Notes under the pieces: generated by a model
The model's database searches: none
The model's input: the letters and a program-made list of their open reading frames with translations, nothing else
What the model was told of the DNA's origin: nothing
Position numbers and translations under genes: made by a program
Assembly: GCA_015056265.1 (NCBI GenBank)
Contig: SVGR01000006.1
Coordinates: 1-45,616 of the forward strand
Direction of reading: 5' to 3'
Length of the DNA stretch: 45,616 nt
Source of the DNA: Clostridiales bacterium
GTDB lineage: Bacteria; Bacillota; Clostridia; Christensenellales; Aristaeellaceae
Shown here: in pieces, positions 11,931 through 29,144 of the stretch
Position numbering within the stretch: the first letter of the stretch is position 1
Layout: each line of letters begins with the position of its first letter

Positions 11931-11945
11931 GAAAGGATGACCCCT

Positions 11946-12696: not shown

Positions 12697-12735
12697 AGGG
12701 CCTGTGCATCCGGTGATGCGCAGGCCTGTTTTTGC
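12697..12735 (+). terminator. intrinsic terminator after the nitroreductase gene
   Basis: A 12-13-bp stem around the loop CGGT (CAGGGCCTGTGCATC against GATGCGCAGGCCTG, with G-T pairs), then TTTTT. It isolates the carbohydrate locus from upstream transcription. Confidence 0.85.
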
Positions 12736-12997
12736 ATGAATACAGAATAATTGTTCATTTCGAAAATTTCGAAATAAAGTAAAAAAGAAAAGATAAGATG
12801 TTATGTTTTGGAAAAACCGAAATAAAAACGAAAATAAAAGGGGTAAATCGGCAATTTATTGTAATATATGAAAAAAACATGCCCATATATCACATATCTA
12901 TGCCGAATGATATTGACGAATAATCAAAAAAATGTTTTAATAAATATATGGTAATTCATCATTCTGATATAGACAAAGAAAAAATGGGGTATGGGAT
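12736..12997 (+). promoter_or_regulatory. AT-rich regulatory region of the carbohydrate locus
   Basis: A non-coding stretch much richer in A/T than the rest of the window. It contains a perfect palindrome at 12757-12775 (ATTTCGAAA-A-TTTCGAAAT) and a well-spaced promoter: -35 TTGACG (12913-12918), 17 bp, -10 TTTAAT (12936-12941). The palindrome lies about 140 bp upstream of this promoter, but the A/T-rich sequence allows other start sites nearer to it. No open frame or RNA gene is seen. The ArsR-type regulator encoded at 31463 is the natural candidate to bind here. Confidence 0.65.
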
Positions 12998-15847
12998 ATG
13001 CGGATTGGATTGAAATCGGTCACATGGCTCTTGGCGGCGCTGCTGTGCCTGATGCTGGTTCCTGCAGCGGGGCTGGGCGAGACGGTGGAGGAGCTGTATT
13101 TAGCCCGCTCTAACGGGGACGATTATGCTGCCTATCTCCATGCCCTGGAGGGTGCGCCCGCCATTTCGGGGCGGACGGATCTGTATGCCGCTCCCGAGGG
13201 CGTTGCCCTGACGGAGGGTCAATCCTTTTCCTTTACGGTGACGGTGGAAGAGGATGTGTTTGCCTATCCGGTGATTACCTATGCCATGACCGGCAACAAT
13301 ATCCTGGATAACGTCTATTCCCTGCTTGTGGACGGCCAATCCCCCTATGCGGAATGCACGGCCTTGTCTCTGGACGCCTGGTGGAGCGCTCCCGACACCT
13401 TTGAAAAGGATCGCTACGGCAACGAAGTGGTCAGCATGCCGGTGAAGGAAATGGGCGTTTATGAATCCCGGCTCTACGGCAAGGCCGGCCTGTACAGCAA
13501 GGGCATGGGGTTGATGCTTACCGCCGGAACGCATGAGATTACACTTGCCTGCAAGGAAGGGCCCTTTGCACTCTACGCCTTCTCCCTGGCAGGGGAAATC
13601 GTGCCTGGGGAGGGCAGGCAGGGCCAATTGCAAAAGGGCGCTGCCATTGCAATCCAGGCGGAAAAGATGCCCCTGCGCAATAACCCCAATGTGCGGGCGG
13701 CCGCCGATTATGATATGGCGCTTACCCCCTACAGCAGCGATAAAAAAGTGATCAATTATGTGGAGGATATCTCCTATCGCTATCCCGGGGATATGATTAC
13801 CTATACCTTTACCGTAGAGGAGGAAGGGGATTACGCCCTGGGGCTGCATATGCGCCAGGCGGACCACGCCAATTTCCCTGTTTTCCGCACCTTCTATGTA
13901 GATGGCTGTATTCCCTCTCCCGATTTTGATAATGTGCAGCTTACCTATTCCCTGGGCTTTGGCAATCAGTCCGTGCTGGACGGGGAAGGTAAGCCGGCCC
14001 TTGTGCATCTCACTGCCGGGGAGCATACCCTTACCATTCAGACCAGCCTGGATCCCCTGCGTCCTGCCATTCAGATGCTCACCTTGATTTCCGATGAAAT
14101 GGCGGCGCTGGCTCTGGATATTACCAAAATCACCGGCGGCAATACCGATTTCTTCCGGGATTTCAATCTGGCAGATTTTGATTTTCATATCGCTGAGGAT
14201 ATGGAAAAGTGGATCAGCGAACTGAAAATGGTGCGTAGCGAGCTGCAGGCCATTGCCGGCAGCAATGGCCGCATTGGCTTCCTCAGCAGCCTGGATGTGG
14301 CCCTGGAGCAATTGGAGCTGCTGGCCCTGGAGCCGGATAATCTGCCCAAGAAGCTCAATCAGTTCACCCAGGGATCCTCTTCCGTGCGCTCTTTCCTGGT
14401 ATCCACCGCGGAAGAGCTGGGCAAGAGCCCCATGGGCCTGGACAGCATCCATTTTTATACCGATAAGGGCCAGCTGCCCCAGGGTCCCGGTCTGTTCCCC
14501 GCCATTGGCGCCGGCATTTCCCGGTTCTTTGCCTCCTTCGGCGATCAGGGCTACACCGCCGGCCTCAATGAGGAAGCGGGCGTTTTGCAGGTGTGGGTCA
14601 ATCGTCCCCGCCAGTATCTGGAGATTCTGCAGCGCATGGCGGATACTTCCTTCACCCCCCAGACCGGCGTGAAGGTGGAATTTTCCATCATGCCCGATGA
14701 AAGCAAGCTGGTGCTGGCTAATGCCTCCGGCAGCGCACCGGATGTGGCCTTGGGGGTATCTACCGGCCGCACCTATGATCTGGCGGTGCGCGGGGCGCTG
14801 ATGGATCTGCGCGGCTATAACAATTTCAAGGAAGTGGGGCGCCAGTTCCCGGCGGGCCTTTTGATTCCCGGGGTGTGCAATGATGGGATCTATGCCCTGC
14901 CTGAAACCTTCAATTTCTATGTGCTCTTCTACCGCAAGGATATCCTGGATAATATCGGGGTGGAAGTGCCGGACAGCTATGAGGACGTGCTGAAAATGCT
15001 GCCTACGCTCCATCGTTTTGGCCTCAATTTCAATAATTTTGTGGCCAATGCCGTGGGGTATAAGAGCTTTTCCATCACCACCCCCTATATCTTCCAGACC
15101 GGCGGCAAATTATACGAGGATGGCAATATCAAAATTCTGCTGGATGAGGAGGCGGCAATCCAAGGGCTGGAACTGCTCACGGAAAGCTTCATCGTCTACG
15201 ATATGGATTATGAAATCAATTCCTTCTATCAGTCCTTCCGGGACGGCACCCTGCCCATCGGCACCGCCAATTACGGCATGTACAATCTGCTGATGAATGC
15301 CGCGCCTGAGCTGACCGACCGGTGGGGCATTGCCCTCTATCCCGGCGTCACTGATGAAAACGGCGTGGTGCAGCGCTGGACCAGCGGGGCGGAGCAGAGC
15401 TGCTTCATCTTCTCCAATACGGAAATGCCCGACGCCTCCTGGCAATTCCTCACCTGGTGGATGAGTGAAGAAACCCAGACGGAATTTGCCTTCACGCTGC
15501 AATCCACCCTGGGCAATGAATACTTGTGGAACAGCGCCAATCGGCAGGCCTTCCTCAATTCCCCCTGGCCCACTGAGCATAAAAAGATCATTGCAGAGCA
15601 AATGGAATGGATCTATGAGGCGCCCCGCATCCCCGGCAACTACATGGTGGAGCGGGAAATCTCCAATGCGATCAATGCGGTGTGCCTGGAGGGGGATAAC
15701 CTGCGTGCCGCCCTGGACGAGGCCATCAAGCGCATCGACCGGGAAGTGGAAAGAAAGCTGGAGGAATTCGGCTGGATCAAGGATGGAGAATTGGTTGTTT
15801 CCTTTAAGGTACCTGATCTGGATACGGTGAGGGGGTGGCTGGAATGA
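12998..15847 (+). CDS. giant extracellular solute-binding protein with N-terminal carbohydrate-binding-like region
   Basis: 949 residues. After a signal peptide (to about [10 protein letters not shown]) come two beta-rich segments (about 35-210 and 215-370) with patterns of carbohydrate-binding modules, for example the repeated tensile-strand motif [19 protein letters not shown] mostly helical linker follows (about 385-480). The last 420 residues, starting near [20 protein letters not shown], form a family 1 sugar-binding protein with typical motifs ([23 protein letters not shown]). Ordinary sugar-binding proteins have about 430 residues, so the 525-residue extension is unusual. No lipobox is present. 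Its stop overlaps the next permease start (ATGA). Role: capture of a large or polymeric glycan at the cell surface for import; the substrate is inferred only from neighbours. Confidence 0.85.
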
Positions 15848-16761
15848 GCGAAAGAAAAGAAGCGGTAAAGCGCATCAAGGGGCCAAAGAGTATTCGGGCG
15901 GCTTACGCCTTTGTAGCCCCCTACGTGCTGCTGTTCTCCCTGTTCATTGTGGTGCCGGTGGTCATCGCCATCGCCCTTTCCTTCACCAATTTCAATACCA
16001 TTCAGATGCCGGATTTCGTGGGCTTCATGAACTATGTGAATCTGCTCACCCGGGATTCCATCTTCATGCAGTATGTGCTGCCCAATACCATTCTTTTTGC
16101 CATCATCGTGGGGCCGGGGGGCTATTTGCTCTCCTTCTTTCTGGCCTGGTGCCTCAGCCAGGTATCCAAGGGCCCCCGTACGGTACTGGCGCTTTTGATT
16201 TATTCTCCCTCTATGACCAGCGGCGTGGCCATGACGGTGGTATGGCGCATCCTCTTCAGCGGCGATGAGCGGGGATATCTGAACGCAATGCTGCTGAATC
16301 TGGGCTGGATATCGGAGCCTATTGCCTTCCTCCAATCCACTGAATACCTGATGCCGGTGATGATCGTCGTGGCCCTGTGGTCTTCCATGGGCGTGGGCTT
16401 CCTGGCCATGCTGGCGGGCATGATGAACATCGACGAAACCATGTATGAGGCCGGGGAAATTGACGGCATTCGCAATCGCCTGCAGGAAGTATTCTATATC
16501 ACCATTCCCCTGATGAAGCCGCAGATGCTTTTCGGTCTGGTGATGGCAGTGGTCAACACCTTCCAGGTGGGCTATATCGGCGTATCCCTGTCCGGGGCCA
16601 ATCCCACCCCCCAGTATGCCGGCCAATTGATCGTCAATCTGATCGAGGATTACGGCTTCATCCGCTATGAAATGGGCTATGCTTCTGCGGCGTCTGTGGT
16701 GCTGCTGCTGCTCATCTATATCATTACCAAGCAATCGGGCAAGATTTTCAAGGAAGATTAA
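15844..16761 (+). CDS. sugar ABC importer permease, MalF-like (permease 1)
   Basis: 305 residues with six or so membrane helices and the ATPase-coupling EAA loop [26 protein letters not shown]. It belongs to the MalF/UgpA class of carbohydrate importer permeases. ATG at 15844 overlaps the stop of the binding-protein gene and is preceded by GAGGGGG, so it is preferred over an in-frame GTG nine bases earlier. A MalG-type partner is not adjacent; one of the permeases at 22018 or 25934 must serve. No ATPase is encoded nearby. Confidence 0.88.
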
Positions 16762-16778
16762 GAAAGGGGGAAGCGGCC

Positions 16779-18806
16779 ATGAAACGGATGACCATCTTGC
16801 TGGCCCTGCTGCTTTTGCTTGCTGCCCTTCCCCTGGAAGGACTGGCGGCGGAAGCGCCCTACTATACCTTTACCCAGACCTATACCGGCCGTTCCGCCTA
16901 TTCTCCGGATGGGTATCTGCCGGATAAAACCTTTATGGATTTCGGCGAGGACGCCCTCAAGCGCCCGGCGGATCTGTTTGTATCCGATGAATGGGGCCTG
17001 TTCATCTCCGACGAGGGGAACAAGCGGGTGGTGCATGCCACCCTGGACGGCGAACTGATCAAAATTATCGGCGATAAAAAGGTATTCAAGCAGCCTGCGG
17101 GCATTTTCGTCAAGCATGGCAAGCTGTATGTGGCGGATGTAAAGCAGGAGCAGGTGCTGATCTTCGATGTGGAGAGCGGTGAAAAGATTTTCACCCTGGA
17201 GCATCCCGGCACCGCCCTTTACGGCGTGAAGGCCGCTTTCAAGCCCCTGGCTGTGGCGGTGGATGATGCCGGGGCCATGTATGTCATCAGTAAGGGCAAT
17301 ACCAATGGCATCGCCCAGTTCAGCGCTGACGGCGTGTTCCTGGGCTATTTCGGCGCCAATACCACCGAGCTTTCCCTGATGGAAAAGCTCAAGCGCCTTA
17401 CCTACAGCAAGGAGCAATTGGCCCAGCTCAAGCGGAATGTGCCTGCTACCCCCACCAATCTTGCCATGGATGAAAGGGGACTGGTGTATACCGTCACTAC
17501 CGGCGCCGAGGGCGTGAAAAAGCTGAGCATGAGCGGCCTGAACATCATGGAGGAAACCCGCTGGGGCTTCACCAATGGGGTGGACGTGGCCGTTGGCGCC
17601 CAGGAAACCATTTTTGTGGTTAATGAACAGGGCTATATCATGGAGTATTCCCGGGACGGCCGGGTGCTGTTCCATTTCGGCGGCCAGGATATTGACCGTA
17701 CCCGCACCGGTTTGTTTGTCAATACGGTGGCAATTGATGTGGACGGCGAGGGCCGGGTCTATGCCCTGGATCGGGAAAAAGCCCTGGTACAGCGGTTTGA
17801 AATCACTGAATACGCCAAGCTGGTGCATCAGGCGCTGAGCCTGTACCAGGAGGGCCTCTATGCCCAGAGCCGGGAGCCCTGGGAAAAGGTGGCCCGGATG
17901 AACAGCATGTTTGACTATGCCCAGATGGGCCTGGGCAAGGCGTATTACAAGCTGGAAATGTATGATGAAGCCCTGGCTGCCTTCCGCCGGGGCGGGGATA
18001 AGGAAGGGTACTCCGATGCCTATTGGGAAGTGCGCAATGTGTGGCTGCAGGATAATGTGCTGCTGCTCATCGGCGGTATTGCGCTGCTGGTATTCCTCAA
18101 ATGGCTGTGGAAGCTGCTCAAGAAGAAGGTGGGGCCCGTGGCGGCGTTTGCGGCTGTGCTGCATCGGGTATTTGATCGGAAGCTGATCCGCGAAATCCGG
18201 TTTATGACCTATTTCCCCCGCAACCCTGCGGATGCCTATTACGGCCTGAAGCATGAAAAGAAGGTATCGGTGCTGTCCGCTACCCTCCTGTATCTGGCGC
18301 TGTTCCTCATCTATATGGTGAATAAATACGCCAGCGGCTTCCTCTTCAAGGGGATTATGGACGGCCGATATGAGGTGGCCACGGATGTTGCACTGGTTTT
18401 CGGCGGGCTGCTTTTGTTCCTGGTGGCCTGCAATCTGATCTGCTCCATCCGGGAGGGCGAGGGCACGTTCAAGCAGATGTACTGCGGCCTGGCCTATGCC
18501 CTGACCCCCTTCATTCTGCTCAAGCCCATTGCCTTTGCCGCTTCTTTTGTGCTTACCTATAACGAAGCCTTCATCATCACCTGCATTGATATCATCGCCC
18601 TGATGGGCTGCCTGGTGCTGATTGTGATGATGGTAAAGCAATTGCAGAATTATTCCTTCCGGGAAACCATCGTATCGCTGCTGCTGACGCTGTTTACCAT
18701 GCTGATGATCATCATTGCCCTGGTAATTGCCATGGCCCTGGTGGTGCAGCTGTGGGAATTCCTTTCCGGCGTGTGGAAGGAGGCCAAATTCTACAATGAA
18801 CATTAA
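16779..18806 (+). CDS. exported NHL-repeat / TPR / Yip1 membrane protein
   Basis: 675 residues with an unusual domain chain. Signal peptide (to LEGLAA-E); an NHL-like beta-propeller (about 40-345) with repeats such as RPADLFVSDEWGLFISDEGNKRVV and QPAGIFVKHGKLYVADVKQEQVLIF; a TPR-like helical segment (about 350-415, SLYQEGLYAQSREPWEKVARM and YKLEMYDEALAAFRRGG); a transmembrane helix (about 425-445); then a Yip1-type membrane domain with about five helices (470-665). The propeller and TPR should face outside and the Yip1 part lie in the membrane. It sits between importer genes, so I infer a scaffold or gating partner of the import complex. The function is unknown. A GAAAGGGGG ribosome binding site supports the start. 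Confidence 0.8.
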   Translation: MKRMTILLALLLLLAALPLEGLAAEAPYYTFTQTYTGRSAYSPDGYLPDKTFMDFGEDALKRPADLFVSDEWGLFISDEGNKRVVHATLDGELIKIIGDKKVFKQPAGIFVKHGKLYVADVKQEQVLIFDVESGEKIFTLEHPGTALYGVKAAFKPLAVAVDDAGAMYVISKGNTNGIAQFSADGVFLGYFGANTTELSLMEKLKRLTYSKEQLAQLKRNVPATPTNLAMDERGLVYTVTTGAEGVKKLSMSGLNIMEETRWGFTNGVDVAVGAQETIFVVNEQGYIMEYSRDGRVLFHFGGQDIDRTRTGLFVNTVAIDVDGEGRVYALDREKALVQRFEITEYAKLVHQALSLYQEGLYAQSREPWEKVARMNSMFDYAQMGLGKAYYKLEMYDEALAAFRRGGDKEGYSDAYWEVRNVWLQDNVLLLIGGIALLVFLKWLWKLLKKKVGPVAAFAAVLHRVFDRKLIREIRFMTYFPRNPADAYYGLKHEKKVSVLSATLLYLALFLIYMVNKYASGFLFKGIMDGRYEVATDVALVFGGLLLFLVACNLICSIREGEGTFKQMYCGLAYALTPFILLKPIAFAASFVLTYNEAFIITCIDIIALMGCLVLIVMMVKQLQNYSFRETIVSLLLTLFTMLMIIIALVIAMALVVQLWEFLSGVWKEAKFYNEH

Positions 18807-20973
18807 GAAAATTGCGGGGCTGATGCTGCTTTTGCTGCTGCTGCCTTTGGCAGGTTTGGCAGAGGAGTACACGGTGGAAAATGATGCGCTGATTCTTTCC
18901 ATCGATACGGAGAATCTGGCCCTGACCCTGACCCATAAGGAAACAGGCCACGGATTGCCCGGCCAGGTGAGCACCGCCGGCATTTCCTCCAAGGAATGGA
19001 AAGGACTGCTGGGCAATGTGTTTGCCCTGGACGTATCCAGCGGCACTTCCACATCCACCAAGCGGGTGGATTTCACCAATGCGCCCTATGAAATGCGGCT
19101 GGAAAAGCTGGAAAACGGCGTGGACGCCTATGTGGATTTCACCCAGCATTGCCAGCGTATCCGGCTGGAGATCCGCTTGGAAGCGGACGGCATTTCCATC
19201 ACTGCTCCTGCGGATGGATTTGAAGAGTATACGATCGAAGATGAAGCGGGCCAGGTGGTCAATGAGGGCACCAGCCTGTGCGGGCTGTATCTGCTGCCTG
19301 CTTTCGGCGCCACGGAATTGGATACCCATGCCGGCTACATCTTTGTGCCCGAGGCCGCCGGCGCCATCATTAATTTCAGCGATGGGGAAGGGGTGGGCAC
19401 CACACCCTTTGCCAAACGCCTCTACGGGGGCAATGTGGGCGTGGATAATGCCGTGGTCAATGTCAGCACCAGCGCCTATGTTAATACCAATCTGAGCCGT
19501 CCGGCGGAAATGGTAACCATGCCGGTATTCGGTATGGCCTATACCGATCTGGGCCTGGGTTGGTTGGGACTGGTGGAAAAGGGCGATGAGGCGGCGGAAA
19601 TCAAGGCCTATCCCGGCGGCGTCATCACCAAGTACAACTGGACCGGCGCATATTTTGTCATCCGGGAAGAATACATCCGCCAGACCACACGTTCCATGGG
19701 CCTGCGCGCCCGGGAAACGAACGGCAACATCCGGGATATGAAGGTGCGTTTCTACCTCTTATCCGGAGAAGATGCTAATTATGTTGGCATGGCCAAGAAA
19801 TACCGGGCTATCCTGGAGGCCCAGGGCGCCCTGAAGAACGCAGATACCGCCTATCGGCCCCGGATCGAATTCCTGGGCGCCGAAAATGAAAAATTCTTGC
19901 TATGGGATCAGCTGGTGATCATGACCGGCATCGGTCATGCCCGGGATATCCTGGAGGACGCCCGTCAAGCAGGCATGAGCGCGCCCCTTGCGGTGTACCG
20001 GGGATGGCAGACCGGCGGCCTGAGCCAAAGCCTTGGCAGCGGCAGCGTTGCCCTGGAAAAGGCCCTGGGCAGCCGGGAGGAGCTGGCAGCGCTGCAGCAG
20101 CAGATCGTGCAGGACGGGGGCGTCTTCCTCATGGAAATGGATCCCGTCATGGCCCATACCGAACGCACCTATAACATGCGGCTGGATATCGTTCGCTCCA
20201 TTGGTCAGACCATTGCCCAGGTATACGTGGGCGGCGAAAGATATGCCAATTTCTACTATCTCACGCCTCCCCGTTCGGCAGAAATCATGAAGGATTATGC
20301 CCAGCAGTATCGGGCGGATTTCCGGGGCCTGTCCCTGGCCACGTTGCCCAGCACGCTCTTTTCCTACTATTCTGCCGGCAGCAATTATACCCGGGGCCAG
20401 ACGCTGGATATGTACTGCAGCGCCCTGGAATCCATGGAAGGGATGACCCTGGCACTGCAGAATCCCCTGGCGGCGTACTTCCCCTACATGGATATCTATC
20501 TGGATATGCCCCTTGGCACCACCAGCTATTCCTTCCTGTCGGCGGAGGTGCCCTTCCTGCCTTTGGTGCTCAGCGGCCATGTGCCCTATTACGGCCCCTG
20601 GAACAATTTTGATTCTAATCAGCAGCGGCAATTGCTCAAGATGGTGGAATACGGGGCCTATCCTTCCTATCTGATCACCCAGGAGGATGTGCAGAAGCTG
20701 GCCTACACCAATTCCAGCAATGTGTTCTCCGCATCCTGGGATGTGATGAAGGATATCGTGCTGGCTGCCGATGAAAAGATTGCTGATCTGTGGGCGGCCA
20801 TTGGGGACAGACAGATGAAAAATCATCAATTGCTGTCCGATGAAGCGGTGCTGGTCACCTGGGGCGATGATGTGCAGGTGCTGGTCAATTACGGAAGCCG
20901 GCCCTTCCAATATGAAGGGCTGCAGGTGGGGCCCCTGGATTATCTGGTGATGAAAGGAGGGAAAGCGGAATGA
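18796..20973 (+). CDS. DUF5696-type exported protein, possible cryptic glycosidase
   Basis: 725 residues, start ATG 18796 overlapping the previous stop by 11 bp. Signal peptide to PLAGLA-EE. The N-terminal half is a large beta-sandwich (strands such as DALILSIDTENLALTLTHKETG), and the C-terminal half (about 380-640) has alternating strand/helix character like a TIM barrel. The combination recalls GH36/GH97/GH101-like glycosidases. An acidic residue, Asp449 in FLMEMDPV at the end of a predicted strand, is a candidate nucleophile, but this is inference. The family (DUF5696 as I recognise it) recurs with Yip1 proteins and sugar permeases in Paenibacillus and Clostridia. No membrane anchor is seen beyond the signal peptide. 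Confidence 0.72.
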   Translation: MNIKKIAGLMLLLLLLPLAGLAEEYTVENDALILSIDTENLALTLTHKETGHGLPGQVSTAGISSKEWKGLLGNVFALDVSSGTSTSTKRVDFTNAPYEMRLEKLENGVDAYVDFTQHCQRIRLEIRLEADGISITAPADGFEEYTIEDEAGQVVNEGTSLCGLYLLPAFGATELDTHAGYIFVPEAAGAIINFSDGEGVGTTPFAKRLYGGNVGVDNAVVNVSTSAYVNTNLSRPAEMVTMPVFGMAYTDLGLGWLGLVEKGDEAAEIKAYPGGVITKYNWTGAYFVIREEYIRQTTRSMGLRARETNGNIRDMKVRFYLLSGEDANYVGMAKKYRAILEAQGALKNADTAYRPRIEFLGAENEKFLLWDQLVIMTGIGHARDILEDARQAGMSAPLAVYRGWQTGGLSQSLGSGSVALEKALGSREELAALQQQIVQDGGVFLMEMDPVMAHTERTYNMRLDIVRSIGQTIAQVYVGGERYANFYYLTPPRSAEIMKDYAQQYRADFRGLSLATLPSTLFSYYSAGSNYTRGQTLDMYCSALESMEGMTLALQNPLAAYFPYMDIYLDMPLGTTSYSFLSAEVPFLPLVLSGHVPYYGPWNNFDSNQQRQLLKMVEYGAYPSYLITQEDVQKLAYTNSSNVFSASWDVMKDIVLAADEKIADLWAAIGDRQMKNHQLLSDEAVLVTWGDDVQVLVNYGSRPFQYEGLQVGPLDYLVMKGGKAE

Positions 20974-22031
20974 GCCAGCTGAAGGCTGAAAAAAAGAGTC
21001 GCCTGAAAAAAGACGCCGGTCATGCCGGGGCTGACTGTCGGCCCGCCGCTGCCTCCCGTCCGGTAATCCATCTTCCCCGGCTGGGATTGGTTGCCCGCCG
21101 GGAAATCAAGGGGTATGTATTCCTGCTGCCCTGGCTGATCGGTTTTTTGCTGTTCTTCGCCCTGCCTCTGGTTCAATCGGTGATTTACAGCCTCCATTCT
21201 GTGAAAATGACTGCTTCCGGGCGGAAGATGAGCTATGTGGGCTTTGAGAATTTCAATTATATCTTCACCAAGGATACCGTCTTTACTGGCTTGATCACCT
21301 CCTTCTACAGCGACACCATCCTGCGCCTGGCTGTGATCCTGGTATTCTCCCTGGTGATCGCTATGATGCTCAATCAGCCCCTGCGAGGCAAGGGCATTTT
21401 CCGCACCATCTTCTTCCTGCCCATCGTGGTGGTATCCGGCCCTGTTTTGCAGCGGCTGGTGGATGAAGGGGCCACCACCGTGCCCCTGATCGAATCCTAT
21501 GGTATTTCCGCTATCGTATCGGAGATGCTGCCCCCCATGCTGGCCGATCCCCTGTCCAGCCTCTTTTCCCAGATGATTCTGGTACTGTGGTATTCCGGCG
21601 TGCCCATTCTGATATATCTTACCGGACTGCAGAAGATTGACCGCTCCATTTACGAGGCGGCCCTTATCGACGGCGCCGGGGGATGGGTGGTGTTCTGGAA
21701 GATCACGCTGCCCTCCCTCCGGTCCATGATCCTCATCAACGGGGTATACACCCTGGTGTTCCTGGCCACCAGCGGCCTGAACAATGTGATGACGGAAATT
21801 GACAACCGCATGTTTGGCAGCGCCCCCTCCGGCGGTTACGGCATTGCCTCTGCTATGGCCTGGGTGTATACCTTGACCTTGGCGCTGGGCCTGCTGATCC
21901 TCTTCCTGATTACCCGGGAACGCAAGCGCAAGGAAGTGGAACTGGTAAAAACCAAGGAACAGGTGCGGGTGGAAAAACTGCATGCACAGCGGGCCGCCGC
22001 CCGGAAAGGAGGCCGCCATGAAAAGCGATAA
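20970..22031 (+). CDS. sugar ABC importer permease, MalF-like (permease 2)
   Basis: 353 residues. A basic, Ala-rich cytosolic N-terminus of about 45 residues precedes GYVFLLPWLIGFLLFFALPLVQSV, the usual first helix of MalF-type sugar permeases. The coupling loop EAALIDGAGGWVVFWKITLPSLRSM is canonical. The C-terminus ends in a long basic tail (TRERKRKEVELVKTKE). ATGA overlap with the DUF5696 gene and overlap with the next permease show translational coupling. It forms a pair with the 22018 permease. Confidence 0.9.
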   Translation: MSQLKAEKKSRLKKDAGHAGADCRPAAASRPVIHLPRLGLVARREIKGYVFLLPWLIGFLLFFALPLVQSVIYSLHSVKMTASGRKMSYVGFENFNYIFTKDTVFTGLITSFYSDTILRLAVILVFSLVIAMMLNQPLRGKGIFRTIFFLPIVVVSGPVLQRLVDEGATTVPLIESYGISAIVSEMLPPMLADPLSSLFSQMILVLWYSGVPILIYLTGLQKIDRSIYEAALIDGAGGWVVFWKITLPSLRSMILINGVYTLVFLATSGLNNVMTEIDNRMFGSAPSGGYGIASAMAWVYTLTLALGLLILFLITRERKRKEVELVKTKEQVRVEKLHAQRAAARKGGRHEKR

Positions 22032-22998
22032 ACTGCACAATGCCAAGGCGGCCGTGAAGAGTAAGCTGCTGGGCGGTAATGAACGGCTGGGCCTGATTGC
22101 AAAGACGCTGCTGTATGTGATGCTGATCTCTCTGAGCTTTGTATTTGTCTATCCCATTCTGCACATGGGTATTACCAGCCTCAAATCTCTGACGGATCTG
22201 CTGGATCCTTCTGTGCAGTGGCTGCCCCATCAATTGTCCATTGATAACTATACCAAGGCTTTGGATGTGATGGGCTTCCAGCATCATTTCTGGGATACCC
22301 TGGCGGTCAGCTTCCTGCCTGCCCTGTCCCAGACCATATCCTGCGCTCTGGCCGGGTACGCCTTTGCCCGGTTCCGGTTTAAGGGCAAGAATTTCTGGAT
22401 GGCCTGTGTGCTGCTCACTTTCATCGTGCCCTTCCCGGTGCTGATGGTGCCCACCTATCTTTTGCATTCTGATTACGGTACTCTCTATAGCCTGTGGACC
22501 ATGCTGCTGCCCGCCATGACGGGCCAGGGCCTGCGCTCTGCTATCTTCATTTTGATTTACCGCGCTTTCTATGAGCAGACCCCTGCCTCCCTGGATGAAG
22601 CGGCCCGGGTGGACGGCGCCAGTGAATCCCGGGTGTTCTTCACCATCGGCATTCCTCTGGGGCTGCCCGCCATGCTGACAACATTCCTGTTCTCCTTCGT
22701 ATGGTACTGGAATGAAACCTACATGACCAATCTGCTGATGGTCAATCCCACCGCCGATAAGGCCAATGCCCTGTCCACCCTGCTGATGGAACTGAGCAAA
22801 TTTGAGGACAGTTATAAGGCCTATCTGCAGAAGGCTGGGGGCTGGGCCGCCGGTATGGGCAGCGCCACCTCCATTCAGAACGAGGCCGTCACCATGGCCG
22901 GTACCATCCTGACCATCTTCCCCCTGCTGATCATCTACTTCTGTCTGCAGCGTTACTTCACTGAGGCCATTGATCGCAGCGGTATCACCGGGGAGTGA
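22018..22998 (+). CDS. sugar ABC importer permease, MalG-like (permease 3)
   Basis: 326 residues, MalG/UgpE class, with the EAA loop DEAARVDGASESRVFFTIGIPLGLPAM and the typical C-terminal end RYFTEAIDRSGITG. The start at 22018 follows a GGAAAGGAGG ribosome binding site and overlaps the previous gene by 14 bp. An insertion around YKAYLQKAGGWAAGMGSATS lies in the last periplasmic loop. Partner of permease 2; substrate unknown but shared with the locus. Confidence 0.9.
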   Translation: MKSDKLHNAKAAVKSKLLGGNERLGLIAKTLLYVMLISLSFVFVYPILHMGITSLKSLTDLLDPSVQWLPHQLSIDNYTKALDVMGFQHHFWDTLAVSFLPALSQTISCALAGYAFARFRFKGKNFWMACVLLTFIVPFPVLMVPTYLLHSDYGTLYSLWTMLLPAMTGQGLRSAIFILIYRAFYEQTPASLDEAARVDGASESRVFFTIGIPLGLPAMLTTFLFSFVWYWNETYMTNLLMVNPTADKANALSTLLMELSKFEDSYKAYLQKAGGWAAGMGSATSIQNEAVTMAGTILTIFPLLIIYFCLQRYFTEAIDRSGITGE

Positions 22999-23000
22999 TG

Positions 23001-23162
23001 GTGCGAAGCTCAGGCTTCAGGCCATACGGCTTCGGGCGTCTTTTCCGCCCTGCCGTTGCTTCTCTCCGGTCTACGTAGCGCTGCTACGCCTCCCTCCGTT
23101 CAGCTTAGGCAGGACGAAAAATCCATCCCGAATCCGGGCGGCCTTCAGCCTTCGCTTCGCAC
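23001..23162. repeat. intergenic inverted-repeat element
   Basis: A 162-bp segment bounded by 23-nt inverted arms: GTGCGAAGCTCAGGC... at 23001-23023 and its imperfect reverse complement at 23140-23162 (19 of 23 match). Inside is a small perfect hairpin CGTAGC-GCT-GCTACG. The element fills most of the gap after permease 3. It has no open frame of its own and looks like a MITE or REP-like palindromic element. Whether copies exist elsewhere cannot be seen here. Confidence 0.6.
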
Positions 23163-23224
23163 GGGGCGCATGAGGAAAGAAAAAGGGAAAAAGGTTTTCT
23201 CTGATTGAAGAAAGGTGAAAAAAT

Positions 23225-24328
23225 ATGTTCCGGAAGGTGATTGCAATGTGTCTGACCATGGCGGCCATGTTTGCCGCGTTCCCCGCCCAGGGGGAAAGTA
23301 TTCTCAACTGGGAAGACGATGCCGTAACCATCTTTGCCGGTGGCGGGGCCTATCCCCGGATGTATCAGCTCAAGGATGGCACGCTGCTGTGTGGTTTTGA
23401 CGCGTCCCTGGGCGGGCCCAATGCCCGCATTGCCGTCAGTCGCTCCACCGATGGGGGCCGCACCTGGACCTATCCCAAGGTGGCGGCGGAAAAGAAAGGT
23501 TTCGACTGCGCCAATGCCAACTTTATTCAACTGGAGAACGGCGATATTCTGCTGGCGTACCGGGCCATCAAGGGCGGAGAAAAGATTGACGCCAAGTTGC
23601 TTTGCTCCATTAGCCATGATAATGGCCTGACCTGGGAACTTCATTCCACCATCATTGAGACCTACGGCTCCGGCGGCGTGTGGGAACCTCACTTCATTAT
23701 GATCGACGGGAAAGTGGCCGTTTTTTACGCCAATGATTCCGAAAGCGCCATGGGTAAGACCGGATTGCAGAATATTGAATTCAAATTGCTGGAGGAGAAG
23801 GGCTGGAGCGGCCGGCACATTGCCTCCCACGGCAATCGCACCGGCTCCCGGGACGGCATGCCGGTGGTGGATCGTCTCTCCGACGGCCGGTATGTGATGG
23901 TGGTGGAGGCAAATGACTTCCCCGATTATGTGTTCGTCACGCAGATCAAATTCTCTCCCGATGGGCTGGATTGGTCTGAACCGCTTAAAACCATTTACAC
24001 CCCCGTGAAGAAGGGGGCGGGCAAGAAGGCCGGTGCCCCTTACATTGTGGTGCTGCCTGGCGATATTCTGGTGGTATCCTTCCAGACGGATGAGGATGCT
24101 ACCGGCAGTGGCGATGGAGTGTCCACCATGAAGGTGATTTATTCCACTGACCTGGGTGAAACCTGGTCTGATCCCTTCACGCCCTTCCCGGTGCCTGATG
24201 GAAAATCCGCCATTTGGAACGGCATGTATTGGGCCAATGATCAATTGTTTGCCCTGACCAGTGCCAATTATCCCGTGGGCGGCATCTTTGCCCGCATTGC
24301 TACCCTGAATGCCCCGGAGGCGGAATGA
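23225..24328 (+). CDS. exported sialidase-superfold glycosidase, GH93-like
   Basis: 367 residues. Signal peptide to FPAQG-ES, then a six-bladed propeller with Asp-box motifs SRSTDGGRTW, SISHDNGLTW and YSTDLGETW. The opening AYPRMYQLKDGTLLCGFD resembles GH93 exo-arabinanases (YPR followed by a strand) more than GH33 sialidases, whose FRIP/YRIP arginine motif is not present. Candidate acidic residues include the Glu in VWEPHFIM and that in VVEANDFPD. Given three GH43 genes nearby, an arabinan- or arabinoside-degrading exo-enzyme is the best inference; a generic BNR-repeat enzyme is the alternative. The ribosome binding site AAGAAAGGTG precedes ATG 23225. Confidence 0.68.
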   Translation: MFRKVIAMCLTMAAMFAAFPAQGESILNWEDDAVTIFAGGGAYPRMYQLKDGTLLCGFDASLGGPNARIAVSRSTDGGRTWTYPKVAAEKKGFDCANANFIQLENGDILLAYRAIKGGEKIDAKLLCSISHDNGLTWELHSTIIETYGSGGVWEPHFIMIDGKVAVFYANDSESAMGKTGLQNIEFKLLEEKGWSGRHIASHGNRTGSRDGMPVVDRLSDGRYVMVVEANDFPDYVFVTQIKFSPDGLDWSEPLKTIYTPVKKGAGKKAGAPYIVVLPGDILVVSFQTDEDATGSGDGVSTMKVIYSTDLGETWSDPFTPFPVPDGKSAIWNGMYWANDQLFALTSANYPVGGIFARIATLNAPEAE

Positions 24329-24407: not shown

Positions 24408-25757
24408 ATGAAAAAACTGCTTTCTATGCTGTTGGTTCTGGTAATGGCCTTGGGCGTGCTGCCCGTTGCCATGGCCGAAGAAGGCCTGGAACCCATGACC
24501 ACCGAAGAAATCACCCTGACCGTGGCCCACTGGGGCCAGGCCGAAGCCGGCGAACCCGAAGTGGTTCAGGCGCTGATTGCTCAGTTTGAAGAAGCCTATC
24601 CCAACATCAATGTTGAATTTTTGAACATCGATCAGAACTCCTGGGATGCTACCCTGAACAACCTGGCCAGCAACGGCAATCTGCCCGATGTGTTCTGGGT
24701 ATTCTCCGTCAGCGCCGCCGTGGCCAACGAATGGGCCCTGGAACTGACTGATTTCTATGCCAAGGATCCCGACGCCAAGGAACTGTTCCCCACCATGGTG
24801 GAAGGCTCCAAGATCGGCGGTAAGAACTATTCCTATCCCGCCGTGCTGTTCCCCCATATGATGTACATGAACACCACCCTGTTTGAACAGTACAACGTGG
24901 AACTGCCCGCTGTGGATTGGACCTGGGATGATTATGTGGAACTGGCTGAAGAGCTGTCCCATCCCGAAGAATTCAACTTCGGCGTATCCAACCCCCTGTT
25001 TGTTGACCTGCTGCCCGCCGCCATCAACGGCAACCAGGGCAAGTTCGGCTGGGATGGCGAAGCCTATCACTTCGACGAAGCCTGGATCGAAGCCGTGGAA
25101 CTGCGCGCTGAAATGATCAACAACAAGATCTGCGAATGGATGACCGCTGAAGAAAAGGAAGCCGTCCTGGGCGATCCCGGCGCTTGGCCTCCCGGAGCCG
25201 GCCGCACCGCTATGCACATCGACTGGCCCTGGACCCTGGCCCAGTTCCAGACCTTCCGCAAGGAAGAAACCGGCTGCGAATGGGTGTATTATCCCCTGCC
25301 CATGGGTGAAGGCAAAGGCGAACTGGCCATCGTTGACAACGGCATCATCTCTGCCTCCACCGAACATCCCCGTGAAGCTTGGGAACTGGCCAAGTGGATG
25401 AGCTGGGGCCCCCAGGCCGCTCTGAAGCGTCAGGAAACCTATCGCGCTCTGGGCTATGCCGTATCCCGTATGCCCGTGGTCTCCACCCCCGAAGTGTGGC
25501 AGGATCTGTATGATAACTGCACCGAGGATCTGAAGCCCTTCTTCGAAGGCGTGCTGACCCGCGGCGTTAACTTCGTGCCCTCCAACTGGCCCGTGTGCCC
25601 CGGCTGGAGCGAAATCGAATCCTACTACAACAGCAACGATATCGATGGCAAGATCCTGCGCGGCGAAATCGAAGCTGCTGACGTGGCGGAAGAACTGGAA
25701 ACCGTGGCCAACAATGCCCGTGATGCCTGGCTGGCCAACAATCTGCCCGAAGATTAA
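24408..25757 (+). CDS. extracellular sugar-binding protein, family 1
   Basis: 449 residues. Signal peptide MKKLLSMLLVLVMALGVLPVAMA-EE without any cysteine, then a standard carbohydrate ABC importer binding protein: ITLTVAHWGQ strand, NINVEFLNIDQNSWDATL, NGNLPDVFWV, and many exposed aromatic residues. Codon use is strongly restricted (AAC, GAA, CTG, GCC, CCC), unlike the neighbouring permeases, suggesting abundant expression like the nucleoside-binding protein. It has its own strong ribosome binding site and perhaps promoter. It is followed by a hairpin and then a single permease. Retention at the cell surface without a lipid anchor is unexplained. Confidence 0.92.
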   Translation: MKKLLSMLLVLVMALGVLPVAMAEEGLEPMTTEEITLTVAHWGQAEAGEPEVVQALIAQFEEAYPNINVEFLNIDQNSWDATLNNLASNGNLPDVFWVFSVSAAVANEWALELTDFYAKDPDAKELFPTMVEGSKIGGKNYSYPAVLFPHMMYMNTTLFEQYNVELPAVDWTWDDYVELAEELSHPEEFNFGVSNPLFVDLLPAAINGNQGKFGWDGEAYHFDEAWIEAVELRAEMINNKICEWMTAEEKEAVLGDPGAWPPGAGRTAMHIDWPWTLAQFQTFRKEETGCEWVYYPLPMGEGKGELAIVDNGIISASTEHPREAWELAKWMSWGPQAALKRQETYRALGYAVSRMPVVSTPEVWQDLYDNCTEDLKPFFEGVLTRGVNFVPSNWPVCPGWSEIESYYNSNDIDGKILRGEIEAADVAEELETVANNARDAWLANNLPED

Positions 25758-25933: not shown

Positions 25934-26797
25934 ATGCGCAGGTCCCGATTCAATCCCAAAGGTTTTCATCTCAATCAGATTCCCATGTTTCTGGTGCTGG
26001 TGCCCCTGGCGCTGTTCATGAGCCTGCCCATCGTATTTATCATCAATCATGCCTTCAAGCCCATTGAGGAATTGTTTGCCTTCCCGCCCAAATTCCTGGT
26101 AAACAATCCCAGCCTGGATAATTTCACCAAGCTGATCCGCCAGGCCAGCGCCGGGGGCATTTCCATCAGCCGCTATATCTTTAACAGCTTGATTGTCACC
26201 CTGTCGGTGGTATTTTTGAGCATAGTGTTTTCCTCTATGTCCGCCTTCGCCTTGAGTAAGCTGCGCTTCCGGGGAAAGAAGACGCTGATGGAAGTGAACA
26301 ATCTGGCGATGATGTTCGTACCCGTGGCGGTGATCATTCCCCGGTATCTGCTGATTGATAAGCTGGGCATGATCAACACCTATTTTTCTCATATCCTGCC
26401 TCTGCTTGCCATGCCGGTGGGTATGTTCCTGGTGAAACAGTTCACCGATCAGGTGCCTGATTCCCTGATTGAGGCGGCGGTGGTGGATGGGGCCGGATAT
26501 TTCACGGTATACCGCAAGATCATCCTGCCCATGATCCGCCCGGCCATTGCCACCGTGGCTATTTTGGCATTCCAGTCGGTGTGGAATAATACGGAAACAT
26601 CCATCATGTTTACCAACCGGGAAAATATGCGCACTCTCACTTTCTATATGAATACCCTGGCCAGTAATACCAATGCCGTGGCCGGGCAGGGCATTGCCGC
26701 GGCTGCATCGCTGATTATGTTCTTGCCCAATCTGATCCTGTTCATCTGCATGCAGAGCAAGGTAATGAATACCATGGCCCATTCCGGCCTGAAATAA
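25934..26797 (+). CDS. sugar ABC importer permease, MalG-like (permease 4)
   Basis: 287 residues, MalG class, with an IPMFLVLVPLALFMSLPIVFIINHAFKP first helix and the EAA coupling loop EAAVVDGAGYFTVYRKIILPMIRPA. The end QSKVMNTMAHSGLK is typical of the class. It has no adjacent MalF partner; the likely one is permease 1 (15844), nine kilobases upstream, which also lacks a partner. The start at 25934 follows GAAAGGCGG. A strong terminator follows. Confidence 0.88.
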   Translation: MRRSRFNPKGFHLNQIPMFLVLVPLALFMSLPIVFIINHAFKPIEELFAFPPKFLVNNPSLDNFTKLIRQASAGGISISRYIFNSLIVTLSVVFLSIVFSSMSAFALSKLRFRGKKTLMEVNNLAMMFVPVAVIIPRYLLIDKLGMINTYFSHILPLLAMPVGMFLVKQFTDQVPDSLIEAAVVDGAGYFTVYRKIILPMIRPAIATVAILAFQSVWNNTETSIMFTNRENMRTLTFYMNTLASNTNAVAGQGIAAAASLIMFLPNLILFICMQSKVMNTMAHSGLK

Positions 26798-26867: not shown

Positions 26868-29144
26868 ATGAAAAAAATGATTGCCTTATTGCTGCTTACT
26901 TCCTGTCTGATGGGCAGCGCCCTGGGGGAAAGCTATTCCAATCCCATCCTGCTTAAAAATTCAATGGGCCAGGTAATGGATGCTGCCGATCCTTATGTAT
27001 TTCGGTTCAACGGCATGTATTATCTCTATTCTACCGGGGCAGCAGAAATCCGCTGCTATCAATCCCGGGATCTGGTCAATTGGGAGTATATGGGCCACTG
27101 CACTCAGGGCGGTAAAGTAAACATTGCTTACGCGCCGGAAGTGTTTTATTGGCGGGGGGATTTTTATATGATCACCTCTCCCATGGGGAACGGCCATTAT
27201 ATCCTCAAGAGCGATAGCCCCCTGGGGCCCTTTGAACCGGCAACGGGCAATTTTGGCTATTCTATTGATGGATCTCTCTTTGCCCTGGATAATGGGGAAC
27301 TGTGGATGTTCTGCCTGGAGGGCAATTCCATCAAGCAGACAAAGATCAATGAAAATACCCTGAAGCCTGAAGGCGTGAAAATTGCCACCGGCGCCAATCT
27401 GAAGGGCTGGACGGAAGGGCCTGGGCTGATCCGCCGGGGGGAATGGAATTATCTCACCTTCTGCGGCAATCATTATCTTTCCACCGGCTATCGGGTGGCC
27501 TGGGCCAGCCGGAAGGGAGAGCCCGTCGGCCAGTATACCCAGCGCCAGGAATCTACCCTGCTGATTAACAGCGAATACGGCACTCAAAACGGCGGCCTGG
27601 GCCATTCCAGCAATTTCTTCGGCCCTGATTTGGAATCGATTTATACCTCCTATCATTGCCACAGCGTTTATGGTAACGGCCATACCCGTTATTATTGTCT
27701 GGATCGGCTGCTGACCAACGGGGGTATGATGTATTCCACCGGTCCTTCTGCCGATAATATGCCCGTCCCGGAAATGCCGGAAGCATACGGCGATCTGCAG
27801 GCTGACGCCGGCCATTTCATCGAAAATGATCAGGGATATTTTGCTGCAGTGCAGCCGGCGTCCCGGTTCACCCAGGAATGCAGTTTTATCCTGAACGGGG
27901 GCATGGCTGCCTGGAAGATGGGCAGCCGGGGGGGCGAAAATGCCATGATCACCGTAGATGGGGAGCAAATTGCCTTTGTGGTGGGTCATGAGGCGCAAAC
28001 CACTGCCACGCTTCCCGAATTGGGGCGTCAGGGCCGCATCCATATTCTGCGCATTGAGCATACCCCGGAAAAAATGTATGTGTCCATCGATTCCATGCAG
28101 GTGCTGACGGTGGATAATCCCGGCGTTACTGCCGATACGGTGGGCGCTTTCAAGACGGAGGGGGCGAATTATTCCTTTATCGCCCATACCGGCCGGGCCT
28201 TGGGGGATGGGGATTATACAGCCGTGAAATCCCTGCCCGGCAAATTTGCCGCTGTCCATGCTTTGGATGGCAGCGAAATGAGGGTTGCAGATACCGGAGA
28301 ACAGGAAGAAATGGCGGCGGTGCTGGGCAGTGCATCCTACAACGTGCGGGTGCAGAAAGCAGGAAAGTACCGTTTCGATCTTACCGTGTCCACCCTGGAT
28401 GCGGGCAAGGAAATCACCATCACCCTGGGAGATACCGCCATGACCTGCGCCGTTCCCTCCTATGGGGGAAAGAAAAAAGCGGCGTTTTTCACCTTTGCAA
28501 CGCCGGAAATTCAGCTGCCCCAAGGGGATCATAAACTGACCATCAGCGGCCAGGATGTGACCATCAGAATGGCGGAGGCATTCCTCAGTGCAGATATGGA
28601 GGATCGAACCTGGGATCTTTCCAAGGGCGATAAGAAGGGCTTGACGCCCCTTGGCTTCTTCTCTCCCAAGAATGGGGCCATATCCATTGCCGCCAACAAG
28701 TGTGGCTATGTGACCGTGGGCAAGGCGGGATGCACCGATTACGAAATGCGGGTGAAATTCCTCATCCCCAGGGCAGGAAGCGGGACAAGCGGTTTCTTCC
28801 TGCGGGGCACCCACGTTTCTTATTTCGATAATGCTATGAAGGATAGCTTCTACGGCTATTCTGTGGCAGTATCTCCCTTGGGGCTGAATGTGCGCCGCAT
28901 CCGCTATGGGGCGGTGGGCAGCACGGAATTCTGCTCCGTTAAGGAATGGGCGAATCAGGAGGCAGGAGAATTGATCCTGCGTGCCGAAGGAAACTGTATC
29001 AGCATATTCCTGCCCGGTATGGAAACGCCCATCCTGACACTGGAAGATGCCGACGCCTTTACCCATGGCATGTGCGGCCTGTTCAGCACCGGAAAAGAAT
29101 TGACTGTTACTGAAATGAGCGTACGTCCTTTGGAGGATAAATGA
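26868..29144 (+). CDS. exported GH43-type glycosidase with C-terminal modules (GH43 A)
   Basis: 758 residues. Signal peptide, then a five-bladed GH43 catalytic domain (about 25-320) with the expected acidic triad: Asp41 in AADPYVF (base), Asp134 in SIDGSLF, and Glu183 in WTEGPGL (acid). About 430 further residues include beta-sandwich segments and a C-terminal jelly-roll (DYEMRVKFLIP ... GTSGFFLRGT ... GLNVRRIRYGAVG), probably carbohydrate binding. The signal peptide contains LLTSC, a possible lipobox, but also an ALG-ES signal peptidase I site, so anchoring is uncertain. Likely an arabinofuranosidase, xylosidase or related exo-enzyme. Start 26868 with GGAGGG upstream. ATGA overlap with its paralogue GH43 B. 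Confidence 0.85.
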   Translation: MKKMIALLLLTSCLMGSALGESYSNPILLKNSMGQVMDAADPYVFRFNGMYYLYSTGAAEIRCYQSRDLVNWEYMGHCTQGGKVNIAYAPEVFYWRGDFYMITSPMGNGHYILKSDSPLGPFEPATGNFGYSIDGSLFALDNGELWMFCLEGNSIKQTKINENTLKPEGVKIATGANLKGWTEGPGLIRRGEWNYLTFCGNHYLSTGYRVAWASRKGEPVGQYTQRQESTLLINSEYGTQNGGLGHSSNFFGPDLESIYTSYHCHSVYGNGHTRYYCLDRLLTNGGMMYSTGPSADNMPVPEMPEAYGDLQADAGHFIENDQGYFAAVQPASRFTQECSFILNGGMAAWKMGSRGGENAMITVDGEQIAFVVGHEAQTTATLPELGRQGRIHILRIEHTPEKMYVSIDSMQVLTVDNPGVTADTVGAFKTEGANYSFIAHTGRALGDGDYTAVKSLPGKFAAVHALDGSEMRVADTGEQEEMAAVLGSASYNVRVQKAGKYRFDLTVSTLDAGKEITITLGDTAMTCAVPSYGGKKKAAFFTFATPEIQLPQGDHKLTISGQDVTIRMAEAFLSADMEDRTWDLSKGDKKGLTPLGFFSPKNGAISIAANKCGYVTVGKAGCTDYEMRVKFLIPRAGSGTSGFFLRGTHVSYFDNAMKDSFYGYSVAVSPLGLNVRRIRYGAVGSTEFCSVKEWANQEAGELILRAEGNCISIFLPGMETPILTLEDADAFTHGMCGLFSTGKELTVTEMSVRPLEDK

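What the first reader, a model, noticed from the sequence alone, without database searches (positions are those of the whole stretch)
12998..22998. Compact module combining a sugar importer with a giant binding protein, an NHL/TPR/Yip1 membrane protein and a DUF5696 protein
Six genes overlap or lie within 20 bp of each other: giant binding protein, MalF-like permease, NHL-TPR-Yip1, DUF5696, MalF-like and MalG-like permeases. Two proteins of unknown function are locked into the middle of an importer operon by start/stop overlaps, implying stoichiometric assembly. I infer a composite surface machine in which the propeller and DUF5696 parts hold or trim a glycan that the long binding protein hands to the permeases. 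Yip1 and DUF5696 next to sugar permeases recur in other Gram-positives as far as I know, but a mechanism is not established. This is my best candidate for an undescribed system.
Basis: partly seen in the sequence, partly recalled or inferred. Interest (0 to 1): 0.75.

Follow-up and report, generated by a model that had tools for sequence, protein, structure and literature searches.

The report
Double sugar-importer cassette with pseudo-glycosidase
The six tightly packed genes are one copy of a widespread but apparently unnamed gene cassette in Gram-positive bacteria that couples two sugar importers to a membrane-anchored propeller protein and to a glycosidase-shaped protein that, in this copy, has lost its catalytic residues, which suggests a dedicated surface machine for catching plant glycans.

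Summary
In detail: six genes at 12998-22998 overlap by 4-14 bp or lie 17 bp apart. They are one of seven paralogous copies in this genome of a cassette conserved in Bacillota: giant binding protein (SBP), MalF1, MalG1, NHL/TPR, Yip1, DUF5696, MalF2, MalG2. The full order occurs in 77 of 80 named loci; contig ends cut the other three. DUF5696 is structurally a relative of GH129/GH101 glycosidases, but the window copy has lost both catalytic residues (T516, Q555), and only 19 of 126 relatives keep both, while four other barrel residues are nearly invariant among them. 'Trimming' is unlikely here; 'holding' is plausible. Best reading: a glycan-capture complex serving two CUT1 importers that use an ATPase encoded elsewhere. 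No paper on DUF5696 was found, nor on the cassette. Physical assembly and substrate are untested.

The parts
12698..12727 (+). terminator-like hairpin (13 pairs, then a T run) that closes the upstream gene; an AT-rich stretch of about 270 bp follows before the operon
   Evidence: 14 terminator-like sites in the region against 11.8 +/- 3.4 in shuffles, so only this longest hairpin is taken seriously; sequence
12998..15847 (+). giant solute-binding protein, 949 aa: signal segment, N-terminal beta region with CBM35-like modules (about residues 60-350, tentative), helical stretch (about 352-475), SBP domain (about 530-925)
   Evidence: mean pLDDT only 66; one N-terminal stretch matches cycloisomaltooligosaccharide glucanotransferase 5x7g at 3.8e-6; SBP part matches Lin1841 5ysb at 1.7e-30
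15835..16761 (+). MalF1 permease, EAA loop EAGEIDG
16779..18806 (+). NHL-TPR-Yip1 protein, 675 aa: signal segment 6-24, NHL/TPR part predicted outside, TM at 421-439, Yip1 domain (481-647) with five TM segments
18796..20973 (+). DUF5696 protein, 725 aa: N-terminal signal or anchor, beta domains and a GH129-like barrel; catalytic positions are T516 and Q555
20970..22031 (+). MalF2 permease, EAA loop EAALIDG (read in the translation)
22018..22998 (+). MalG2 permease, EAA loop EAARVDG
23225..24328 (+). secreted BNR/Asp-box (sialidase-like) protein; the C117 cassette of this genome is also followed by three related BNR proteins
24408..25757 (+). ordinary solute-binding protein (449 aa), likely partner of a permease pair
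25934..26797 (+). MalG1 permease (EAA loop EAAVVDG), moved out of its usual place after MalF1; the same placing is seen in the sister cassette L017
26829..29144 (+). GH43 enzyme
29141..31450 (+). GH43 enzyme with a weak CBM6 match
31463..32416 (+). winged-helix regulator (HTH_20)
32413..34173 (+). GH2 enzyme
34339..36579 (+). GH43 enzyme

Best explanation
The locus is one member of a conserved double CUT1 importer cassette for plant-derived oligosaccharides. SHOWN by sequence or prediction: two permease pairs with EAA coupling loops; a giant SBP; a protein predicted to hold an NHL/TPR part outside the membrane on a Yip1 membrane domain; a DUF5696 protein with a GH129-like predicted fold and, in this copy, no catalytic pair; an ordinary SBP and GH43/GH2 enzymes downstream; no ATPase in the cassette, but UgpC-like ATPases elsewhere in the genome. 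INFERRED: the propeller and DUF5696 sit at the outer face of an importer (most likely MalF2/MalG2) and bind, orient or retain glycan fragments rather than cut them; the CBM-like modules of the giant SBP hold longer or branched fragments for MalF1/MalG1; the ordinary SBP feeds MalF2/MalG2; both importers share the genome's UgpC/MsmX-type ATPase; paralogous cassettes differ in substrate, which would explain seven copies with different neighbouring enzymes.
For: Order conserved in 77 of 80 named loci, the other 3 cut by contig ends. In 44 non-own phylum loci MalF2 is found in 42, MalG2 in 41, NHL in 41 and Yip1 in 39; every locus lacking MalF2, MalG2 or NHL has a contig end within about 1 kb on that side, and 2 of the 5 lacking Yip1 (L089, L090) only score below my threshold, since Pfam finds Yip1 there. 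74 of 83 DUF5696 have Yip1 within 3 kb upstream on the same strand. All 26 DUF5696 genomes of the phylum sample have the giant SBP N-terminal part (in G103 cut by the contig start); 2 of the other 273 have it at full length, both on contigs of about 4 kb that end inside MalF1. Component divergences correlate among divergent cassettes (r 0.82-0.94), and for most components among six cassettes of this one genome. Fold and profile: GH129. Catalytic positions eroded; W404, R533 and N604 kept in 126 of 126 and E618 in 125 of 126 non-own relatives, and all four in the window copy. Two first genes downstream of cassettes: 30 of 112 scanned are SBPs, others include GH26, GH42, GH43, GH10, GH31, GH113 and pectate lyase. 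ATPases elsewhere.
Against: No co-fold or binding result. Pairing of DUF5696 with MalF2/MalG2 is not borne out inside this genome: there its divergence follows MalF1 (r 0.92) better than MalF2 (0.76) or MalG2 (0.48); across all cassettes it is the other way round (0.83 against 0.93 and 0.89). The two halves are separable in some genomes (L213-L215; 22 of 44 phylum loci show no giant SBP nearby), so a single obligate complex is not required. 19 of 126 DUF5696 keep both catalytic residues, so some may be enzymes. The four 'kept' residues vary among the own paralogues: W404 is F in L018 and L019, R533 is P in L016, N604 is T in L015, E618 is A in L016, L018 and L019. A Paenibacillus cellulosilyticus cassette lies among flavin oxidoreductases, with no glycosidase annotated nearby, so the cargo may not always be a glycan.
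Confidence: 0.5

Rival explanations
1. DUF5696 is an active membrane-anchored GH129-like glycosidase that trims the incoming oligosaccharide; the NHL-Yip1 protein is its docking partner.
For: Fold and profile match GH129; the position of NagBb D435 is Asp in 100 of 126 relatives, and 19 of 126 keep both catalytic residues.
Against: The acid/base position is Glu in only 28 of 126 (S 34, D 21, N 13 and others); the window copy has neither residue, and none of the seven own copies has both.
Confidence: 0.2
2. The propeller/Yip1/DUF5696 unit is a sensor: it monitors importer occupancy or extracellular glycan and signals to regulators found nearby.
For: A histidine kinase and a response regulator lie upstream of the Butyrivibrio cassette, on the other strand; a winged-helix regulator lies downstream of the window cassette.
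Against: The regulators seen are of different kinds, and I labelled no regulator in the conserved order (regulators as such were not surveyed); Pfam found no cytoplasmic signalling domain in the window NHL-TPR-Yip1 or DUF5696 proteins.
Confidence: 0.15
3. Ordinary co-regulated neighbours: two importers and independent envelope proteins share an operon without physical or functional assembly.
For: The halves are found apart in some genomes; there is no direct interaction evidence.
Against: Fixed gene order across divergent paralogues and genera, and all 26 DUF5696 genomes of the sample carry the giant SBP even where halves lie apart.
Confidence: 0.15

Closest known systems
CUT1 (MalFGK2-type) sugar ABC importers with a shared MsmX/UgpC ATPase
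   Same: SBP domain, MalF/MalG-like permeases with EAA loops, no ATPase found in the operon
   Different: two permease pairs in one cassette, a giant SBP with CBM-like modules, and extra envelope parts (NHL/TPR, Yip1, DUF5696)
GH129 / GH101 alpha-N-acetylgalactosaminidases (NagBb 5wzn, Zobellia 5opq)
   Same: overall predicted fold (GH129 TM-scores 0.61-0.64 normalised by the query), profile match 3.8e-5, the Trp of the 'GW' motif
   Different: catalytic Asp/Glu pair mostly eroded and absent in the window copy; predicted N-terminal anchor; encoded next to permeases
Gram-positive polysaccharide utilisation loci
   Same: transporter, degradative enzymes and a regulator in one locus
   Different: three papers on such loci or glycobiomes that I term-searched contain neither NHL nor Yip1 in their main text (PMC5320581, PMC10318527, PMC2914790)
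Bacteroidota SusCD with surface glycan-binding proteins (comparison by function only, recalled)
   Same: would place non-catalytic glycan-binding proteins at an importer
   Different: ABC importers instead of a TonB receptor; no homology claimed

Membership tests
CUT1 ABC importer | SBP plus MalF/MalG-type permease pair | tested here: met
CUT1 ABC importer | EAA coupling loop in each permease | tested here: met
   all four window permeases. Elsewhere by regular expression 120/120 MalF1, 103/104 MalG1, 89/128 MalF2, 131/141 MalG2 (the labels include some permeases outside cassettes); three MalF2 printed there and read by eye (L014, L049, L117) carry a Val variant (EVA..EG), other misses were not read
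CUT1 ABC importer | an ATPase of the MsmX/UgpC type available | tested here: met
   two UgpC-like proteins at 49% identity on contig C152; pairing with this cassette not shown
GH129/GH101 glycosidase | overall fold | tested here: met
   predicted model
GH129/GH101 glycosidase | catalytic Asp and Glu (NagBb D435, E478; roles recalled, positions mapped through L177) | tested here: not met
   window T516 and Q555
Gram-positive polysaccharide utilisation locus | transporter, glycosidases and regulator together | tested here: met
Gram-positive polysaccharide utilisation locus | induced by, and needed for growth on, a given glycan | not testable with these tools
   needs growth and expression tests
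Yip1 domain protein | Yip1 domain over the Pfam cut-off, with five TM segments | tested here: met

The most novel reading that the evidence does not exclude
The cassette encodes one composite 'double-barrelled' importer of Bacillota: two different CUT1 permease dimers joined by a Yip1-anchored propeller and a pseudo-glycosidase of GH129 ancestry that acts as a glycan receptor, a Gram-positive functional counterpart of Bacteroidota surface glycan-binding proteins, diversified by paralogy (7 DUF5696 genes here; 22 DUF5696 match rows, fragments included, in genome G082) to match many plant glycans.
Probability: 0.3. Interest if true: 0.8.

Novelty: new variant of a known kind. Interest (0 to 1): 0.6.

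Why it matters
How Gram-positive bacteria capture and hand over complex plant glycans at the cell surface is, to my knowledge, less understood than the Sus systems of Bacteroidota. A fixed eight-gene cassette found in many Bacillota, in several diverged copies in some genomes, with a repurposed glycosidase fold, names concrete proteins to test. It would also give a functional context to DUF5696 and to a bacterial subset of Yip1 proteins, and would help substrate prediction for Paenibacillus, Butyrivibrio and uncultured relatives.

Tried and rejected
An alignment of all seven own DUF5696 was too diverged for a collection scan; a tighter alignment worked. The pdb_via library was not on the machine; I went on with Foldseek alone.

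Idea that the 1574-1575 aa DUF5696 frames in two relatives are fusions with the propeller: rejected, they have an insert and a long C-terminal extension that looks repetitive. Idea that the organism is diderm and the parts periplasmic: no Omp85 found (the genome is 78% complete, so absence is weak), lipoprotein transferase present; taken as monoderm. Idea that MalF2 lacks the EAA loop: an artefact of a strict pattern. RNA families: none at gathering score in the window nor at E 0.05 in 11900-26000. Paper searches gave no listed title on the cassette; 'DUF5696' has 0 papers. Of only the first 5 of 3,274 and 6 of 20 papers were listed.

Rows dropped: three fragment rows over the cut-off and four rows below it, five Yip1 rows below the cut-off. 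Of the nine DUF5696 without Yip1 upstream five start within 511 bases of a contig start, one (G082:C250) has about 1 kb upstream, one is a permuted cassette, and two (G082:C266, G082:C108) were not checked. Of the 25 Yip1 without DUF5696 downstream, one is the permuted cassette, four in G082 and G135 are cassettes cut by contig edges (three show a DUF5696 fragment, the fourth only the NHL/Yip1 frame), and 20 are outside cassettes. Several control stretches are short (down to 4.2 kb) because of contig ends. In one search the flanking-gene list had 115 entries (genes of 900 aa or more and genes on the other strand already left out by the script); I sent 112, leaving out three large ones to stay under the size limit.
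Full report
1. The observation. The six genes exist as described, with overlaps of 4-14 bp and one 17-bp gap. Pfam gives SBP, permease, Yip1 with weak NHL/TPR, DUF5696 and permease domains (MalF2 just under its cut-off). A terminator-like hairpin at 12698-12727 and an AT-rich stretch precede the first gene, so the operon probably starts just before 12998. No RNA family was found at gathering score in the window, nor at E 0.05 in 11900-26000.

2. Paralogues in the same genome. The genome (2.36 Mb, 176 contigs, 78% complete) has seven DUF5696 genes and six Yip1 matches, every one beside a DUF5696. The seventh DUF5696 (L017) also has an NHL/Yip1-like gene upstream, found with the window protein as query though not by Pfam's Yip1. 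Comparing the seven copies (one, L016, is cut by a contig start) gives the common cassette: SBP, MalF1, MalG1, NHL/TPR, Yip1, DUF5696, MalF2, MalG2, with the last pair placed first in two copies, and NHL and Yip1 either fused, as in the window, or split. The window copy and L017 lack MalG1 in its usual place, but both have a MalG1-like gene downstream of an ordinary SBP. These two copies are each other's closest relatives among six in 7 of 8 components, including that MalG1; Yip1 is the exception.

3. Generality. In 299 genomes drawn from the phylum, 26 have DUF5696 over the cut-off, this one included. I fetched the 44 non-own neighbourhoods over the cut-off listed there, at most four per genome, and labelled them with profiles made from the own copies. 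MalF2 was found in 42 of 44, MalG2 in 41, NHL in 41, Yip1 in 39, MalF1 in 23, giant SBP in 22, MalG1 in 22. Loci missing MalF2, MalG2 or NHL have a contig end within about 1 kb on that side; two of the five missing Yip1 (L089, L090) only fall under my score threshold, as Pfam finds Yip1 there. Of the 22 loci without the giant SBP, two are on short contigs and 20 come from seven genomes of two families (f47, f62); 10 of those 20 have at least 7.9 kb of upstream sequence, so the absence is real at least there. A named set of 80 loci, the best of 565 confirmed and mostly Paenibacillus but also Cohnella, Lederbergia, Acetivibrio, Gracilibacillus, Lachnoclostridium and others, shows the full order in 77; the other three are cut by a contig end. 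Two plasmid records, of Butyrivibrio fibrisolvens and Paenibacillus cellulosilyticus, carry the same order in their annotation.

4. Tests against chance. In the 25 other genomes with DUF5696, 74 of 83 DUF5696 matches have Yip1 within 3 kb upstream on the same strand, and 74 of 99 Yip1 matches have DUF5696 downstream. As a control I looked at Yip1 genes outside cassettes: 20 in DUF5696 genomes and 9 in genomes without it. Of these 29 loci 2 had any permease or SBP match, at 24 and 52 bits, against mostly 260-500 bits for permeases in cassettes. The N-terminal part of the giant SBP, searched alone in what its handles show to be the same draw of 299 genomes, occurs in all 26 DUF5696 genomes (in G103 only the part left by a contig start) and at full length in 2 of the other 273, both on contigs of about 4 kb that end inside MalF1. 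Six further genomes have partial matches only. Pairwise divergences of the eight components correlate at 0.82-0.94 over 4155 divergent pairs from 96 cassettes (pairs are not independent, and species relatedness contributes). Within this genome (six cassettes, 15 pairs) the six components other than MalF2 and MalG2 correlate at 0.84-0.94, MalF2 at 0.61-0.81 and MalG2 at 0.33-0.61; for the five component pairs tested 1 to 14 of 720 label permutations reach the observed value.

5. The two halves. In some genomes the cassette is split: L213 has DUF5696, MalF2, MalG2, NHL/Yip1, and L214 and L215 show SBP, MalF1, MalG1 alone in the stretch fetched. Loci such as L053, L056 and L068, without the first half nearby, have a protein of 429-446 aa after MalG2. 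Of 112 proteins scanned from the first two genes downstream of cassettes, 30 are SBPs by Pfam. I infer that the NHL/Yip1/DUF5696 unit belongs with MalF2/MalG2 and an ordinary SBP, and the giant SBP with MalF1/MalG1. The correlations do not settle this: across cassettes DUF5696 follows MalF2 (0.93) and MalG2 (0.89) better than MalF1 (0.83), but about as well the SBP (0.92), and within this genome it follows MalF1 (0.92) better than MalF2 (0.76) and MalG2 (0.48).

6. DUF5696. The AlphaFold2 model of the window protein has mean pLDDT 82 and pTM 0.87. The best PDB matches are GH129 enzymes (5opq 1.5e-31, NagBb 5wzr 2.0e-27), then GH101 and GH36. A sequence profile also finds NagBb at 3.8e-5. Intermediate proteins from the same genus (L177, L178) match DUF5696, DUF6259 and GH101 together (GH101 under its cut-off for L177), and L179, from the same order, also GH129. 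L177 aligns directly with NagBb: its D360 and E403 fall on D435 and E478 by my count in the printed alignment. The roles of these two as nucleophile and acid/base are recalled, because the paper is not held. In 126 non-own DUF5696 sequences (44 phylum and 80 named loci plus L175 and L176, a few duplicated) the Asp position is Asp in 100, the Glu position is Glu in 28, and both are present in 19. W404, R533 and N604 are present in all 126 and E618 in 125. The window copy keeps these four but has T and Q at the catalytic positions. None of the seven own copies has both catalytic residues, and some own paralogues also lose one or more of the four (W404 in L018 and L019, R533 in L016, N604 in L015, E618 in L016, L018 and L019). 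So in most of the family the barrel is conserved more than the chemistry, which fits a binding or scaffold role. That the conserved residues line the pocket is inferred from their place near strand ends, not from inspected coordinates.

7. The other parts. The NHL-TPR-Yip1 protein has a signal segment, an NHL/TPR region predicted outside, one TM helix and five Yip1 helices (hydropathy; topology inferred). DUF5696 has an N-terminal hydrophobic segment in 108 of 131 called genes and the giant SBP in 85 of 106, by crude gene starts. The giant SBP model is of low confidence (pLDDT 66). Its SBP domain resembles Lin1841 and other CUT1 SBPs; one stretch of its N-terminal region matches a cycloisomaltooligosaccharide glucanotransferase at 3.8e-6, in what I recall to be its CBM35 domain. 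EAA loops are present in the four window permeases and in most others. No ATPase was found among the genes of the window cassette; UgpC-like ATPases are elsewhere in the genome.

8. Substrate. Downstream in the window are a BNR protein, an SBP, three GH43, a GH2 and a winged-helix regulator. Elsewhere the neighbours include GH26 (4 of 112), GH42 (3), GH43 (3), GH10 (2), GH31 (2), GH113 (1) and pectate lyase (1) (25 of 84 families were shown). For the window copy an arabinose- or xylose-containing hemicellulose or pectin side chain is the natural guess (inference). A Paenibacillus plasmid cassette sits instead beside flavin oxidoreductases.

9. Literature. DUF5696 occurs in no paper of the library. 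Combined searches for Yip1, NHL, ABC and SBP terms gave no hits or 13 papers that look unrelated by title and abstract start. Passages of PMC12710961, PMC12838199, PMC10318527, PMC2914790, PMC5320581 and PMC8106489 were seen by term search only (PMC12838199 gave no passage). The genes are annotated one by one in public records; I found no account of the cassette as a unit. The library lacks most subscription papers.

10. Verdict. A real, widespread and, as far as searched, undescribed cassette; a variant of CUT1-based glycan uptake with new envelope parts. The mechanism (a receptor or scaffold at a double importer) is inferred, confidence about 0.5.

Noticed in passing
L177 7346-9055, L178 7167-8909, L179 8648-10525: Proteins of about 570-630 aa from related genomes that link DUF5696, DUF6259, GH101 and (L179) GH129; L177 and L178 keep both catalytic residues and no cassette was seen in their stretches: possible active glycosidase family.
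   Followed up: partly
L175 7134-11855, L176 1372-6096: DUF5696 frames of 1574-1575 aa with an insert and a long repetitive-looking C-terminal extension.
   Followed up: partly
L174 (Paenibacillus cellulosilyticus plasmid): Cassette beside a UgpC ATPase gene and several LLM flavin oxidoreductases, suggesting a cargo other than a plant glycan.
   Followed up: no
window 5108-10883: Phosphoribosyltransferase, Bmp/PnrA binding protein, ABC ATPase with two ATPase stretches and two BPD_transp_2 permeases: looks like an ordinary nucleoside importer.
   Followed up: partly
window 768-4273: Two adjacent ABC_membrane/ABC_tran proteins, a likely exporter pair.
   Followed up: no
window 11059-12674: DUF3737 protein with a weak beta-helix match, just upstream of a nitroreductase-like gene.
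   Followed up: no
window 40900-45600, minus strand: Protein of 1233 aa or more with bacterial SH3 domains, next to a CHAP/peptidoglycan-binding protein.
   Followed up: no
genomes G007, G054, G093, G127, G157: Frames of about 250-560 aa that match parts of the N-terminal (CBM-like) region of the giant SBP, with no full-length match; all in one family (f15).
   Followed up: no
L016 7808-11392: Three tandem BNR-type proteins downstream of another cassette of the same genome.
   Followed up: no
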